Shown: piece by piece, positions 49,944 to 56,148 of the stretch
How positions within the stretch are numbered: the stretch's first letter is position 1
How the letters are laid out: every line of letters starts with the position of its first letter
Source of the DNA: Litorilituus sediminis
GTDB lineage: Bacteria > Pseudomonadota > Gammaproteobacteria > Enterobacterales > Alteromonadaceae
NCBI RefSeq assembly: GCF_004295665.1
Contig: NZ_CP034759.1
Coordinates: 1,116,001-1,180,000 of the forward strand
Length of the DNA: 64,000 bases
Reading direction: 5' to 3'
Notes under the pieces: generated by a model
What the model saw: only the letters and a program-made list of their open reading frames with translations
Told to the model about the DNA's origin: nothing
The model's database searches: none
Translations under genes and position numbers: made by a program

Positions 49944-51308
49944 TTAGATTGCCATTATTTGGGGAATATTTGATAGCGTCATTGCTATCTTCTTCATATT
50001 TTGTGCTGCCGCAGCCATATATGCTTGCATTTGAACATTATGCTTACCTCGGTATCTTGCATACCTGTGACCATGGTGTTGCTTTGCATCAGCAAAACTT
50101 CTTTCAACGGTTTCGCATCGTCGTTTGTAAAGGTATTTACCAAGGCTTGTTAAGCGAAATTCATTAGCCCGATCTTGACTCGCAGCCATTACGTGGCGTG
50201 TTATCACTTTCTTATGACTTTTACTCTTAGTGCAATCTTTTAATTGAGGGCAATTAACGCATACCTTGGGGTCAGAATGATATTCTCGGTAACCCTCTCG
50301 ACTGGTGGTCGAGTAGATTAACGTTTGCTCTTGCGGGCAGGTATACGTATCTGCTTTCTCGTCGTATTTGAAGTGCTTTTTCTTAATGGCATTCTTCGTT
50401 CGTGAAGGACGACGGTAACCAAACACCCCTTGGATGTTACGTTGTTCCAGATTAAAACAGACGGGCGCTGTGAAGTAGCCTGCATCAATACCAACAAATT
50501 CAGGGGATAGTGCAAAGCGATTTTCAATGGCATCAAGGCGAGCAATGTATGGTTGAGAATCGTGGACATTACCTGGCGTAATATGCGTATCTACAATAAT
50601 GTTATAGTCGTTATCTACGGTTCTGTGGTCTAGGTAGAAAAAACCTTTTGGCTTTTCATCTCGGTGCATATAACCGCTATCACTATCGGTTTTACTTACC
50701 TTATTCCGCTTTATCTCACAATAGCCTTTATCCTTGAGTGGCTTTTTTCCAGCCGCTTTACGGTCTGCCTCCACAGCTTTGTTGATTTGCTTAATATAGG
50801 CACTGGTTGAGACGGGTTTGAGCTTGTTGGTGAACTTTCGTTTATTGGCGTTTGCTTTTAAGTGTGTGCTGTCGGTGAATAAGGCTTTGCCCCCAACTAG
50901 ACCATGTTTAATGGCTTGTTGGACGATGTGATTAAATATACGTTCAAATACATCTGTGCCATTGAAACGACGAATACGATTTTGACTAAGTGTTGAGGCA
51001 TCGATAACTTTCTCGGTAAGCCCCATGCGGAGAAACCATCGATACGCGACATTTACTTCGATGTCTTTGATGATTTGGCGCTCACTTTTAATACCAAATA
51101 AGTACCCAAGTAGCATAATTTTAAATAGCTGGACTGGCTCCACCGGAGGACGACCATTATCAGTGCAATATAAGTCTTTGACTTCATCTCGAATAAACTC
51201 AAAGTCAATATACTTATCGAGTTTACGAACTAGATGGTTGGCTGGAACTAACTGGTCTAGCGTGACCATTTCGAGTTCATGTTGTTGCGGGGAAGGTTCT
51301 CTTAACAT
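49944..51308 (-). CDS. IS1182-family transposase
   Basis: DDE transposase of 454 residues. N-terminal IS1182-type domain (VTLDQLVPANHLVRKLDKYID, RPPVEPVQLFKIMLLGYLFG), then the RNase-H-like catalytic core with Asp146 (LFTDSTHLKANAN), Asp275 (FVGIDAGYF) and Glu402 (ETVERSFADAKQ). A Cys cluster at about 350-359 (VCVNCPQLKDC) lies in the insertion domain, as in other members. The reading frame is complete with no stops or frameshift. Confidence 0.93.
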   Translation of the reverse strand: MLREPSPQQHELEMVTLDQLVPANHLVRKLDKYIDFEFIRDEVKDLYCTDNGRPPVEPVQLFKIMLLGYLFGIKSERQIIKDIEVNVAYRWFLRMGLTEKVIDASTLSQNRIRRFNGTDVFERIFNHIVQQAIKHGLVGGKALFTDSTHLKANANKRKFTNKLKPVSTSAYIKQINKAVEADRKAAGKKPLKDKGYCEIKRNKVSKTDSDSGYMHRDEKPKGFFYLDHRTVDNDYNIIVDTHITPGNVHDSQPYIARLDAIENRFALSPEFVGIDAGYFTAPVCFNLEQRNIQGVFGYRRPSRTKNAIKKKHFKYDEKADTYTCPQEQTLIYSTTSREGYREYHSDPKVCVNCPQLKDCTKSKSHKKVITRHVMAASQDRANEFRLTSLGKYLYKRRCETVERSFADAKQHHGHRYARYRGKHNVQMQAYMAAAAQNMKKIAMTLSNIPQIMAI

Positions 51309-53091: not shown

Positions 53092-53982
53092 ATGAATTGG
53101 GATGATATAAAAGTATTTCTAGAAATAGCGCGCTCAGAACGGCTCAATATAGCAGCTAAACGTTTAGCTATGGACGCATCAACATTATCTAGAAGGTTAC
53201 ATAAATTAGAAGAACAACTAGCCACTAAGCTATTTAGCCGCACCACTGAAGGTCATGTACTGACACTAGACGGTGAAAAGTTATTACAGTTTGCGAGGCG
53301 TATGGAGCTCAATGCAAATCAAGCATTTACGCATATCAAAGAGCATAATCCATTAGATAGTGGCCGAGTTAGAATTGGCGTAACCGAAGCCTTTGGCAGC
53401 TTTTTTATTGCTCCGCATTTAGGTGACTTCCAAGAAAAGTATCCAAACATTGAAATTGAGCTGCTTCACTTTGCCCGAAATATTAAAATAAGTCGTAATG
53501 AAGCTGATATTGCAGTTGCAGTTGATAAACCCAAAAATACTTCAACCATTATCAGTAAATTATGTGATTATCAGTTACAGCTCTACGCACATCCTAGTTA
53601 TTTAACTAAAGTAATGGGCAAGATAGATTTAGCACAATTAGCCAGTTATCGCTGGATAAGCTACGTTGACAACTTGTTATATACAGAGCAACTTGCTTAT
53701 TTAAAAGATCTCAACCCCAACATTAAACCTCACTTTCAAAGTACCAGCATTACCAGCCAATATAGTGCAATTAAAAGTGGTTTAGGTATTGGCATTCTGC
53801 CTTGTTTTTTGGCAGAGCAAGATGCAAGTTTAATTAAAGTCTGTGCTGAAGAAGTTAAACTTACCCGCAGTTTATACTTAGTGACTCACCCTGAAAGTAA
53901 GCGTTTATCGCATGTAAACTCGGTGTGGCAGTATTTAAGAGCGCTGACGGAAAAACATCAGAGGCTTTTAATACCTGAATAA
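53092..53982 (+). CDS. LysR-family transcriptional regulator
   Basis: 296-residue regulator with an N-terminal winged helix-turn-helix (MNWDDIKVFLEIARSERLNIAAKRLAMDASTLSRRLHKLEE region, quoted in part as LAMDASTLSRRL) and a periplasmic-binding-like effector domain (GRVRIGVTEAFGSFFIAPHL onward). No Shine-Dalgarno sequence is visible, since the upstream palindrome runs almost to the ATG. Divergent from mmsA with 160 bp between, so mmsA is the likely target and the inducer probably a valine-pathway intermediate. The IS110-type element begins 6 bp past its stop codon. Confidence 0.88.
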   Translation: MNWDDIKVFLEIARSERLNIAAKRLAMDASTLSRRLHKLEEQLATKLFSRTTEGHVLTLDGEKLLQFARRMELNANQAFTHIKEHNPLDSGRVRIGVTEAFGSFFIAPHLGDFQEKYPNIEIELLHFARNIKISRNEADIAVAVDKPKNTSTIISKLCDYQLQLYAHPSYLTKVMGKIDLAQLASYRWISYVDNLLYTEQLAYLKDLNPNIKPHFQSTSITSQYSAIKSGLGIGILPCFLAEQDASLIKVCAEEVKLTRSLYLVTHPESKRLSHVNSVWQYLRALTEKHQRLLIPE

Positions 53983-54067
53983 TTAACCTGATGTGATGGT
54001 CTCCTCCCTAATTCGGCATTTAAGTGCCATGATTGAATTGCATACAATCAAAACGGGAGAAGACCAG

Positions 54068-55078
54068 ATGCAGATTACAACAATTGGTATAGATATAGCA
54101 AAAAACGTATTTCATGTGGTGTGCTGTAACGCTAAAAATAAAATAGTCCGTAAGAAAGCCGTCAAACGTCGGGAACTGCTCCATTATGTGACAAACTTAC
54201 CAAAAAGTATTGTTGCCATGGAGGCATGCTCTACTTCCAACTACTGGGGTAGAGAGATTGCCTCATTAGGACATAAGGTAAAGCTACTTCCTGCTCAACA
54301 TGTAAAAGCGTTTTTAACAGGAAATAAAAATGACTACAACGACGCATATGCGATTGTTGTAGCTTCACAGCAGGCACATATTAAAGCAGTGCCAATAAAA
54401 ACCATTGAAGAGCAGGATAATCAGCTTATTCATAAGGTCAGGGAATTAGCGATAGGGCAAAGAACAGCCTTATCTAATCAAATTCGTGGGTTACTGCTTG
54501 AATATGGAGTTAGCATTAAACAAGGCATCAAAAATTTACGCAAGGACGTTGTTGATTTATTAGATGAGACATCAAGCTTAAGTAGTACATTTAGGCAAGT
54601 ATTAGCTCAGTTATATAGTCAGCTAGTGCACTTGGATAAAACTATTAAACAATATGACGAGCATATTAAGAAACAGGTAGCAAGTAATGACGCTTGTCAG
54701 CGTCTACAGACTATCCCAGGAGTTGGTCCAATAGTCGCTAGCGGCTACTACAATGAGGTTGGTAATGGTAGACACTATAAAAGAGGACGAGATGTCTCGG
54801 CGTCACTTGGTTTGGTGCCACGTCAGCATAGTACTGGCGGTAAAGACATATTACTTGGCATAAGCAAGCGGGGAAATCGCTATCTGAGATATCTTCTAGT
54901 ACAAGGTGCTAAAGCAGTCGTCTCAAGAGCGAAAAATAAAACAGATAAGCTTAGTCAGTGGATAAATCGAATCGTAGCAACACGAGGACATAACAAGGCT
55001 TGTGTTGCCTATGCCAATAAAATGGCAAGAATAGCTTGGGCTATAACCGTTTCAGGGGAAAGTTACCAAGCTTTATAG
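54068..55078 (+). CDS. IS110-family transposase (IS1111 group)
   Basis: 336-residue DEDD recombinase. The ATG at 54068 (MQITTIGIDIAKNVF) has GGGAGA upstream; the in-frame ATG at 53993 starts inside the IS end and is rejected. N-terminal RuvC-like domain with Asp9, Glu52 (AMEACSTSNYWG), Asp89 and Asp92 (NDYNDAYAIV). C-terminal Transposase_20 domain with LQTIPGVGPIVASGY and ASLGLVPRQHSTGGKDILLG, the latter containing the serine region used for strand exchange. Frame intact. Confidence 0.93.
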   Translation: MQITTIGIDIAKNVFHVVCCNAKNKIVRKKAVKRRELLHYVTNLPKSIVAMEACSTSNYWGREIASLGHKVKLLPAQHVKAFLTGNKNDYNDAYAIVVASQQAHIKAVPIKTIEEQDNQLIHKVRELAIGQRTALSNQIRGLLLEYGVSIKQGIKNLRKDVVDLLDETSSLSSTFRQVLAQLYSQLVHLDKTIKQYDEHIKKQVASNDACQRLQTIPGVGPIVASGYYNEVGNGRHYKRGRDVSASLGLVPRQHSTGGKDILLGISKRGNRYLRYLLVQGAKAVVSRAKNKTDKLSQWINRIVATRGHNKACVAYANKMARIAWAITVSGESYQAL

Positions 55079-55305
55079 AAATACTCTTCAGCGAATTGCG
55101 AAGGTAAATGGGTAGATGATTAAACAGGTCAAACCGGCATATTGAAAACCTGTCGAGCTCAGGGGTAGTAAAATACCGACAACCTGATAAGGACAATATG
55201 CGCGATTTACATCTAGGTCAGGGCAAATAAATTAAGTGCTCATAAACAGACCGAATATATGACAGCAAACCTGTCCCTGTTATCACCTAATAGACCTTGC
55301 AATAC
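55079..55305 (+). ncRNA. Predicted seekRNA/bridge RNA region of the IS1111-group element
   Basis: Non-coding tail after the transposase, where IS1111-group elements encode their guide RNA. Local pairing: ACAGGT / ACCTGT (around 55126-55151) and GGTA-GTAAAA-TACC (about 55164-55177). Flanking the second hairpin are GTCGAGCTCA (55152-55161), the exact complement of the right target TGAGCTCGAC (55322-55331), and AACCTGAT (55181-55188), identical to the left junction (53985-53992). RNA ends cannot be set from sequence. Confidence 0.65.
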
Positions 55306-55347
55306 GGGAGGAGACCATATATGAGCTCGACTTAATAAATAGCTCTG

Positions 55348-56148
55348 CTAAAAGATAGTTTGCAAATACTGCTGATAATTCTCTAACGATGCCGGGTTGC
55401 CTTTACTTCGTTGACAAACACTTTTTTGGTACTGAAAATTAAAAACATCAAACCATAAATCAAGTAAATGGGCATTTTGATGCTCGCCACACATATCTAG
55501 AACTCGCGCGGCAACTTCAGCAGTAGAAAATTGATGTGCTAATTCGGTTTTTCTTACCGTATAACGTGAATCTTCCCCTACCGGCGTAACAGAGAGCTGT
55601 TTAGACTGGCTTGCAAGCTCAGGATCAAATGAAATTACAGGGAATCGATTAAGGTAAGGGCTTTTCCTAAACATTTTTTTCGCCTCTCGCCAACTGCCAT
55701 CAAGCATGATAAATAAAGGCCTCTTGCCGTGCTCACACTCAACTTCCTTGCTGACAACTTCTCTCCCCTCTTCAACATAAGCCTCTGGAAAAACAACCAT
55801 AGGCTGCCAAGTATCATCATTTAAAATAGCAAGTAGCTCAGTATTTTCTTTGGTTCTATCCCATAAAAAAGCATAGGTATCTGGGACAATATCAGCGATT
55901 AATTTACCGGTATTACTCGGTTTTAATACTTCCGTGTCATACATGAGTAATAAAAAACCAGCGCCTTTATTTACAGCATCTTGTTTTTTCTTTTCCTCAG
56001 TAATTTTTGCCAATGGCGATAGTTCACAAATACAAAAGCGACTTGCAAGGCGACAATGCTCACACCTGATCACTCTTTGCCCTCGAGCTTTGTAGGTTGT
56101 GGTGCTAAGACTTTTGCGATATTGATAAAGTTGATGAACCGAATGCAT
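55348..56148 (-). CDS. DTW domain protein, probable tRNA-uridine aminocarboxypropyltransferase
   Basis: 266-residue protein of the DTW family (TapT/YfiP type), which makes acp3U in tRNA from S-adenosylmethionine. An N-terminal zinc-ribbon-like set of cysteines is at 29, 32, 39 and 41 (RCEHCRLASRFCIC). The signature motif reads DGSW (150-153) instead of DTW/DGTW, followed by REAKKMFRKSPYL. LLMYDTEVLKPSNTGKLIAD (SAM-side motif, His replaced by Tyr-Asp) and FLWDRT are also seen. Function is by family; target position not known. Converges with the LysR/IS110 locus. Confidence 0.8.
   Translation of the reverse strand: MHSVHQLYQYRKSLSTTTYKARGQRVIRCEHCRLASRFCICELSPLAKITEEKKKQDAVNKGAGFLLLMYDTEVLKPSNTGKLIADIVPDTYAFLWDRTKENTELLAILNDDTWQPMVVFPEAYVEEGREVVSKEVECEHGKRPLFIMLDGSWREAKKMFRKSPYLNRFPVISFDPELASQSKQLSVTPVGEDSRYTVRKTELAHQFSTAEVAARVLDMCGEHQNAHLLDLWFDVFNFQYQKSVCQRSKGNPASLENYQQYLQTIF

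What the first reader, a model, noticed from the sequence alone, without database searches (positions are those of the whole stretch)
53985..55331. Guide-like matches between the IS1111-type element's non-coding tail and its own insertion site
In the tail after the transposase, GTCGAGCTCA (55152-55161) is the exact reverse complement of TGAGCTCGAC (55322-55331). That site is the first ten bases of flanking DNA when the element's right end is set 3 bp outside the subterminal repeat. A second stretch, AACCTGAT (55181-55188), is identical to the left junction (53985-53992), of which AACC is flank and TG is shared by both junctions. A small hairpin (GGTA-GTAAAA-TACC) separates the two. IS110/IS1111 elements are known to choose targets with a bridge RNA/seekRNA, one guide complementary to the right top strand and one to the left bottom strand. 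The observed polarity fits that logic, and the reconstructed empty site is AACC-TG-AGCTCGAC. Caveats: GAGCTC is self-complementary, which raises the chance of matching, and the second match is short. A weaker pair for the donor ends (ATATG 55196-55200, ACATC 55209-55213) is only 5 nt each.
Basis: partly seen in the sequence, partly recalled or inferred. Interest (0 to 1): 0.8.

Follow-up and report, generated by a model that had tools for sequence, protein, structure and literature searches.

The report
RNA-guided transposon aimed at another transposon
A marine bacterium carries a small jumping element whose non-coding tail spells out the DNA site it sits in, and that site is the end of another, repeated mobile element; relatives with different tails sit in correspondingly different sites, so the tail works like an address label.

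Summary
The element (53989-55321, 1333 bp) is an IS1111-type IS. A letter-identical second copy elsewhere in the genome sits in the same target, AACC^TGAGCTCGRC, and uninterrupted copies show that the target is host DNA. It is the terminal inverted repeat of MITEs (182-207 bp) that share their ends with an IS982-family IS.

In 61 of 64 elements with both flanks (the window's included), two guide positions follow each element's own flanks: top-strand guide 6.44 of 9 against 3.01 permuted, bottom-strand guide 5.03 of 6 against 2.34, 0 of 10000 permutations each. A Colwellia maritima relative, its transposase 94% identical to another's, carries other guides and sits in the same kind of repeat in the opposite orientation. 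The RNA fold shows compensatory changes.

Corrections: the guides are 55153-55161 and about 55181-55186; ATATG (55196-55200) is RNA stem, not a donor guide; ACATC (55209-55213) does co-vary with the left end.

The mechanism is published (seekRNA/bridge RNA, 2024). New here are the target, the reversed target and the extent of natural retargeting. No RNA or transposition was measured.

The parts
53989..55321 (+). IS1111-type insertion sequence, 1333 bp; identical second copy at G000:C1 about 2.793 Mb
   Evidence: ends set by the 7/3-bp rule and consistent with uninterrupted sites
53985..53988 (+). left half of target, AACC, host DNA
   Evidence: uninterrupted AACCTGAGCTCGGCTTAA at G000:C1:295402 and 4140253
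55322..55346 (+). right half of target: remainder of an IS982-type MITE end; AACC plus these letters match an intact MITE end (L006) at 28 of 29 positions, then diverge
53989..53995 (+). left 7-bp extension TGATGTG
53996..54008 (+). left subterminal inverted repeat ATGGTCTCCTCCC
54068..55078 (+). transposase, 336 aa from ATG 54068 (an upstream in-frame ATG at 54029 gives 349 aa, the form used in searches); PF01548 DEDD + PF02371; motif GLVPRQHSTG
55079..55305 (+). downstream non-coding region (seekRNA/bridge RNA gene)
55137..55144 (+). 5' strand of main RNA stem, pairs with 55194-55201
   Evidence: helix 2: all 8 pairs have double changes
55194..55201 (+).
55149..55151 (+). CCU, pairs with AGG 55190-55192, closes the target loop
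   Evidence: helix 3 (nearly invariant)
55153..55161 (+). top-strand (right-target) guide TCGAGCTCA
55164..55177 (+). hairpin between the guides, GGTA/TACC
   Evidence: helix 4: all 4 pairs have double changes
55181..55186 (+). bottom-strand (left-target) guide AACC plus core TG
55208..55213 (+). left-end (donor) guide UACAUC, would pair with GATGTG of the left extension (last pair U:G)
   Evidence: 0 of 20000 permutations
55216..55252 (+). 3' stem-loop GGUC/GACC with inner stem
   Evidence: helices 5 and 6
55297..55302 (+). TTGCAA, -35-like; completed by -10-like TA^TGAT only when the ends join in a circle
55306..55318 (+). right subterminal inverted repeat GGGAGGAGACCAT
55319..55321 (+). right 3-bp extension ATA

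Best explanation
This is an intact-looking IS1111-family insertion sequence whose downstream non-coding region encodes a seekRNA/bridge RNA. One internal loop of the RNA holds two guides: 55153-55161 pairs with the top strand right of the insertion point, and about 55181-55186 pairs with the bottom strand left of it. Together they specify AACC^TGAGCTCG, the terminal inverted repeat of an IS982-related MITE family scattered through the genome, so this IS homes into end sequences of another mobile element. A further segment (55208-55213) pairs with the IS's own left end. Joining the ends in the excised circle would assemble a promoter (TTGCAA-17-TATGAT) that drives transposase and RNA. Shown here: anatomy, target, uninterrupted sites, and covariation of guide with target, of guide with left end, and of stem partners. 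Inferred from published work on other IS1111 members: that the RNA is made, is bound by the transposase, and directs insertion.
For: Identical second copy in the same target; its flanks agree with the window's for 7 nt on the left and 8 nt on the right up to the first mismatch. 27 target-like sites in the own genome (13 forward, 14 reverse), 0 for the reversed control pattern; 14 of the 27 form seven inverted pairs that bound 191-193 bp elements. Guide/target match in 61 of 64 elements: strict T 6.44/9 vs 3.01, B 5.03/6 vs 2.34, 0 of 10000 each; sliding the guide window by 1-4 nt removes nearly all of the signal. Sister pairs: T own better than crossed in 26 of 30, equal 2, worse 2; B 21 of 30, equal 9, worse 0. 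Donor guide against left end: 62 of 64 usable, 1.71 of 2 vs 0.97, and 42 distinct 1.67 vs 1.05, 0 of 20000 each. RNA fold: 27 pairs, 38 sequences, 98.1% of cells paired vs 85.1% shuffled, 19 pairs with double changes vs 11.2, slid controls 33-44%. Transposase: PF01548, PF02371, NF033542 'IS110 family RNA-guided transposase' 319 bits, cut-off 140. Circle-junction -10 has at least 5 of 6 letters in 46 of 64 elements, against 0 of 64 with the integrated right flank.
Against: No transcript, ribonucleoprotein or transposition was observed, and there are only two intact copies in this genome. Weak rows in the fixed register with G:U allowed: the T guide scores 4 or less of 9 in 9 of 61 (L075, L095, L038, L040, L039, L045, L055, L048, L049), of which L075 and L038/L040 look better one nucleotide along; the B guide scores 4 or less of 7 in 14 of 61 (L068, L066, L078, L102, L100, L106, L038, L040, L039, L044, L046, L058, L056, L047). 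In a blind scan of the tail the single best hit fell on the guide column for T in 48 of 61, and for B in only 32 of 61; the window element itself is among the B ties. The window RNA alone does not fold unusually well (z = -1.34), and Rfam has no match. The structure counted came from RNAalifold on the same sequences, which favours it over slid versions. The L063 guide fits no exact site of the searched pattern in its own genome G039.
Confidence: 0.93

Rival explanations
1. The matches are chance, favoured by the self-complementary GAGCTC and by short lengths.
For: The 7-nt identical stretch alone occurs in 153 of 3000 shuffles.
Against: Complement of 10 or more in 0 of 3000 shuffles; covariation with non-palindromic targets such as L068 ATATACCCA/TGGGTATAT, L126 TGTAGCCCG/CGGGCTACG and L061 TGAGGCACG/CGTGCCTCG at the same columns, 0 of 10000 permutations.
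Confidence: 0.01
2. The ends are misplaced: TGAGCTCG belongs to the IS and not to the host DNA.
For: TG is shared by both junctions, so the cut cannot be placed inside it by sequence alone. In the 64 relatives the ends were set by the 7/3-bp rule, so their spacing is no independent evidence.
Against: Uninterrupted AACCTGAGCTCGGCTTAA exists at other loci of the genome; relatives with nearly the same element ends have different flanks.
Confidence: 0.01
3. The RNA recognises the site only at excision (the flanked donor), or the tail is a copied record of the last target, picked up by gene conversion, rather than a guide for insertion.
For: The last two letters of the 8-nt match are conserved letters that agree with the IS's own left end; published work reports that excision also needs the correct flanks (PMC11187229).
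Against: The guides sit inside one conserved RNA loop with compensatory stems and have opposite strand polarity, which simple copying would not give; experiments on other IS1111 members show reprogramming of insertion (PMC11187229, parts 1-5 of 9 read).
Confidence: 0.04
4. The IS is aimed at a folded or protein-recognised feature of MITE ends, and the RNA match is secondary.
For: The target is a terminal repeat holding a palindrome; some IS1111 relatives use REP or attC sites (PMC11187229).
Against: Relatives sit in AACC^TGAACTCG, CGAGC^TGAGGTT (opposite strand) and unrelated sites, following their guides.
Confidence: 0.02

Closest known systems
IS1111-family seekRNA elements (ISEc11, ISKpn4, ISPst6, ISPa11; Siddiquee et al. 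2024, PMC11187229; parts 1-5 of 9 read)
   Same: DEDD transposase, downstream non-coding region, subterminal repeats with 7/3-bp extensions, top-strand guide before bottom-strand guide, overlapping target matches, natural retargeting (ISEc11 versus ISXne4), circle-junction promoter
   Different: Target is an IS982-type MITE terminal repeat; a left-end guide is supported here by covariation, which the parts I read do not report; expression and transposition not tested here
IS4321/IS5075 (IS1111 family, target Tn21-family terminal inverted repeats; seen as a title in the reference list of PMC11208160, otherwise recalled)
   Same: An IS1111 element homing into the terminal inverted repeats of another transposon
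   Different: Other transposon family; here the target repeat is that of an IS982-type IS and its MITEs, and one relative uses the opposite orientation
Bridge RNAs of IS110/IS621 (Durrant et al. 2024, PMC11208160; passages and section 12)
   Same: RNA with target and donor guides; [quoted passage not shown]
   Different: In the IS110 group the RNA lies in the left end (PMC11208160); the reversed guide order is stated for ISEc21 in PMC11187229

Membership tests
IS1111 family | DEDD (RuvC-like) N-terminal domain plus PF02371 C-terminal domain | tested here: met
   PF01548 3.1e-13, PF02371 4.4e-21; NF033542 3.2e-95
IS1111 family | GL-P----S/TG motif; transposase of 330-350 aa | tested here: met
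   GLVPRQHSTG, 336 aa from ATG 54068
IS1111 family | 11-13 bp subterminal inverted repeats with 7-bp left and 3-bp right extensions | tested here: met
   13 of 13 bp; the ends so set rejoin to the uninterrupted repeat
IS1111 family | long non-coding region downstream of the transposase gene | tested here: met
   55079-55305, 227 nt
IS1111 family | specific target, one orientation, no target duplication | tested here: met
   two identical copies in the same target and orientation; flanks rejoin to the repeat without duplication; only two copies
IS1111 family | top-strand match precedes bottom-strand match in the RNA and both follow the target | tested here: met
IS1111 family | promoter formed by abutted ends in a circular intermediate | tested here: inconclusive
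   sequence present: TTGCAA-17-TATGAT; no circle or transcript observed
IS1111 family | 70-100 nt seekRNA bound to the transposase and needed for transposition | not testable with these tools
   needs RNA sequencing and a transposition assay
IS110 family (as opposed to IS1111) | long non-coding region upstream of the transposase, bottom-strand match before top-strand match | tested here: not met
   region is downstream and the order is top then bottom
IS982-family MITE (the target repeat) | short element without gene, terminal inverted repeats shared with an IS982-family IS, direct repeats at its ends | tested here: met
   14 short elements of 182-207 bp in five genomes; 995- and 996-bp elements with like ends in G007, one of which was tested and encodes an NF033520 IS982 transposase, 277 bits, cut-off 130; direct repeats exact in some (TTAATTAA, TTACTTAA), imperfect in others

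The most novel reading that the evidence does not exclude
A clade of IS1111 elements in Colwellia, Shewanella and their relatives has specialised as a parasite of another transposon family: its RNA guides follow the variant of the IS982/MITE terminal repeat that is common in each host, and have even been re-set to enter the same repeat from the opposite strand. Exact-site counts for three guide patterns agree in G007 (27 for its own, against 11 and 14), G040 (9 against 2 and 1) and G042 (15 against 1 and 1), are neutral in G000 (4 against 5 and 0), and disagree in G039 (0 against 8 and 1). The three patterns are not equally degenerate, and the own guides of the resident elements of G016 and G041 were not counted.
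Probability: 0.35. Interest if true: 0.65.

Novelty: new member of a known kind. Interest (0 to 1): 0.5.

Why it matters
It supplies a natural experiment: dozens of RNA-guided recombinases with guide, target and left-end sequences that can be read directly from genomes, including sister elements over 90% identical in transposase with different addresses. That suggests pairing rules (9-nt top-strand guide, 4 nt plus 2-nt core bottom-strand guide, G:U tolerated, a left-end guide next to CAU) before any experiment, useful both for understanding how such elements change targets and for choosing recombinases for genome writing. It also shows one mobile element apparently using RNA to home into the ends of another.

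Tried and rejected
Rfam search of 53900-55420: no match at E <= 1. Viral contigs: no relative confirmed. Single-sequence folding of the window RNA: z = -1.34, and its minimum-energy fold pairs CCUG with CAGG across the guide, which is not conserved; replaced by comparative folding. ATATG as a donor guide: rejected, it is a stem strand with compensatory changes. attC or REP as the target: rejected for this element; it is a terminal repeat of an IS982-type MITE. My first guess that the repeat was IS1595-type was wrong (note; NCBIfam says IS982). Papers on IS982-type MITEs in Shewanella or Colwellia, or on IS1111 elements entering MITE ends: one search found none; of the titles listed (15 of 451; 20 of 71; 6 of 6) none was on this subject; only open-licence papers are held, and these were seen as listings.

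Rows dropped: loci without a recognisable ATGGTC/ATGGAC-type subterminal repeat pair, and duplicates, were left out, giving 64 elements from 141 loaded loci, which also include loci of the target repeat; 3 of 64 lacked flank length; 2 of 64 lacked the donor motif, and in a few more the first CAT picked may not be the guide; for the fold 38 of the 64 were used (transposase identity of 45% or more, five left out by hand, two duplicates); 14 of 64 transposases were left out of the tree for a stop or short length.

Full report
What was checked. The coordinates and letters in the finding are correct. The element spans 53989-55321 by the IS1111 convention of 7 bp left and 3 bp right outside perfect 13-bp subterminal repeats (53996-54008, 55306-55318). 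Its transposase (54068-55078) has both IS110/IS1111 domains and the GL-P----TG motif.

Same-genome test. A whole-genome search with the element and its flanks gave two full matches and three short ones. The second copy is identical over all 1333 bp. It sits in TTAACC^TGAGCTCGGCTTAAT, against TTAACC^TGAGCTCGACTTAAT in the window; the flanks agree for 7 nt on the left and, with that one mismatch, about 15 nt on the right, then differ. The change (A to G) leaves a G:U pair with the guide. One short match (L003) is a decayed left end of a related element that also abuts AACC; the other two are uninterrupted target repeats.

Nature of the target. A search for AACCTGAGCTCGRYTTAA with up to 2 mismatches found 27 sites in the genome (13 forward, 14 reverse) and none for the reversed control. 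Fourteen of them form seven inverted pairs that bound elements of 191-193 bp with direct repeats of about 6-8 bp, exact in some (for example TTACTTAA) and imperfect in others. In genome G007 the same kind of end bounds 995- and 996-bp elements; the 996-bp one encodes an IS982-family transposase (NF033520, 277 bits against a cut-off of 130). The target is therefore the terminal repeat of an IS982-type MITE family. At the window site the first 29 letters match an intact MITE end at 28 positions and then diverge, and the second site matches the first 19 letters, so both look like repeat-end remnants rather than intact MITEs. G007 is taken to be Colwellia maritima because its contig C7 has the same length (271,096) as the named record of L064 and holds the same element; the window genome is in the same genus.

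Relatives. A search of 39 genomes of the genus found relatives (E <= 1e-60) in 19; a scan of named genomes gave 79 loci, capped at the best 80 of 89; a scan of viral contigs none. Ends could be set mechanically for 64 distinct elements, the window's included. Selection used the subterminal repeats, not the guides; the ends were set by the 7/3-bp rule.

Guide test. With fixed alignment columns taken from the window element, 61 of 64 elements had both flanks. Watson-Crick matches of the 9-nt guide with the element's own right flank averaged 6.44, against 3.01 when flanks were permuted; the left guide (4 nt plus 2-nt core) 5.03 of 6 against 2.34; neither was reached in 10000 permutations. Allowing G:U the values were 6.95 of 9 against 4.15, and 5.51 of 7 against 3.38 (0 of 2000 each). 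Moving the guide window by 1-4 nt brought the means down to about 3-4 of 9 and 2-3 of 7; a small excess over permutation remained at T +1 and B -1, as one-base register slips in some rows would give. To reduce the effect of relatedness, 30 disjoint nearest pairs with different guides were compared: own pairing beat crossed pairing for T in 26 (2 ties, 2 worse) and for B in 21 (9 ties, none worse). Scanned blind, the single best position for the right flank in the tail was the guide column (within 1 nt) in 48 of 61; for the shorter left flank in 32 of 61. Weak rows are listed under evidence against.

Reversed target. L034 (the same element as L064, in G007) has guides ATAACCTCA and CGAGCTGA, and flanks CCGAGC^TGAGGTTAA. 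This is the same IS982-type end read on the other strand, in the variant AACCTCAGCTCGG, of which 27 exact sites (pattern CGAGCTGAGGTTA) exist in G007. Its transposase is 94% identical to that of L035, which has forward guides and sits in AACC^TGAGATCGG. Exact-site counts for three guide patterns in seven genomes favour the resident element's own guide in G007, G040 and G042, are neutral in G000 and contrary in G039; they are not a controlled test.

How TIR-like the relatives' sites are. Among the eight distinct flank pairs with AACC or CGAGC on the left, my reading is that the window copy, L002, L034, L035 and L125 carry a clear end of this repeat, while L063, L067 and L085 match it only in part.

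RNA structure. On 38 sequences, 27 named pairs are 98.1% paired (85.1% when shuffled), 19 pairs show changes on both sides (11.2 shuffled), and slid versions give 33-44% paired. The named structure came from RNAalifold on a first alignment of the same sequences; RNAalifold on the second alignment gave the same helices except the outer GAUG/CAUC one. Layout: stem 55137-55144/55194-55201; CCU/AGG; loop with T guide, hairpin 55164-55177, B guide; then the left-end guide; then a 3' stem-loop. ACATC is supported: in 62 of 64 usable elements the two bases before CAU pair with the two bases after ATG in the left extension (mean 1.71 of 2 against 0.97 permuted, 0 of 20000; 42 distinct cases 1.67 against 1.05, 0 of 20000).

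Circle junction. Joining right end to left end gives TTGCAA-17-TATGAT; the -10 has at least 5 of 6 consensus letters in 46 of 64 elements at the junction and in 0 of 64 with the integrated right flank. A plain scan of the integrated sequence found no excess of promoters.

Place among known things. The testable defining features of the IS1111 family are met; the circle promoter is a sequence match only, and the RNA itself could not be tested. The mechanism, guide order, 7/3 ends and natural retargeting are published (PMC11187229, parts 1-5 of 9 read; PMC11208160, passages and one section read). Homing of IS1111 elements into terminal repeats of Tn21-family transposons is also known (title seen in a reference list; otherwise recalled). 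New here, as far as the listings show, are the IS982-type MITE end as target, the opposite-orientation relative, the covariation evidence for a left-end guide, and the scale of natural retargeting in one clade.

Limits. Everything is comparative sequence evidence. No RNA, protein complex or movement was measured; counts treat related sequences as separate except in the pair test.

Noticed in passing
window 55115-55118 with 55210-55213: The RNA's own GAUG can pair with the CAUC of the left-end guide (100% of cells paired, 3 of 4 pairs invariant); the same CAUC also matches the IS left end, which suggests a pairing exchanged on DNA binding.
   Followed up: partly
L003:1501-1568: Decayed left end of a related IS1111 element in the same genome, also preceded by AACC.
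   Followed up: partly
L173 around 219-236; L174 around 277-294: Two solitary IS982-type end sequences in the own genome lie directly behind what look like gene stop codons (AAATAACC...), like the window site behind the LysR-type gene; they may serve as 3' ends or terminators (not tested).
   Followed up: no
window 49944-51308 (-): Another transposase gene (DUF772 plus DDE_Tnp_1_6) about 2.7 kb upstream of the IS1111 element.
   Followed up: no
L100 (Shewanella canadensis), right end: The right end is duplicated in tandem (GGGATGGGTCCATATAAAACGGGATGGGTCCATATA).
   Followed up: no
G021:C1:4137021-4146833 (L059, L061 and one copy not fetched): Three copies of a distant relative within 10 kb; the two that were fetched have the same right flank CGTGCCTCGCTTATTT, so the target may be a local repeat array.
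   Followed up: no
L075, L038, L040: The top-strand guide appears to fit its flank one nucleotide off the register of the other elements, suggesting some slack in loop length (by eye).
   Followed up: partly
L083, L074, L087, L107 flanks: Several relatives sit in GTAGG/GTAGCC-type palindromic sequences that look REP-like, so the clade may move between repeat families (REP likeness recalled, not tested).
   Followed up: no
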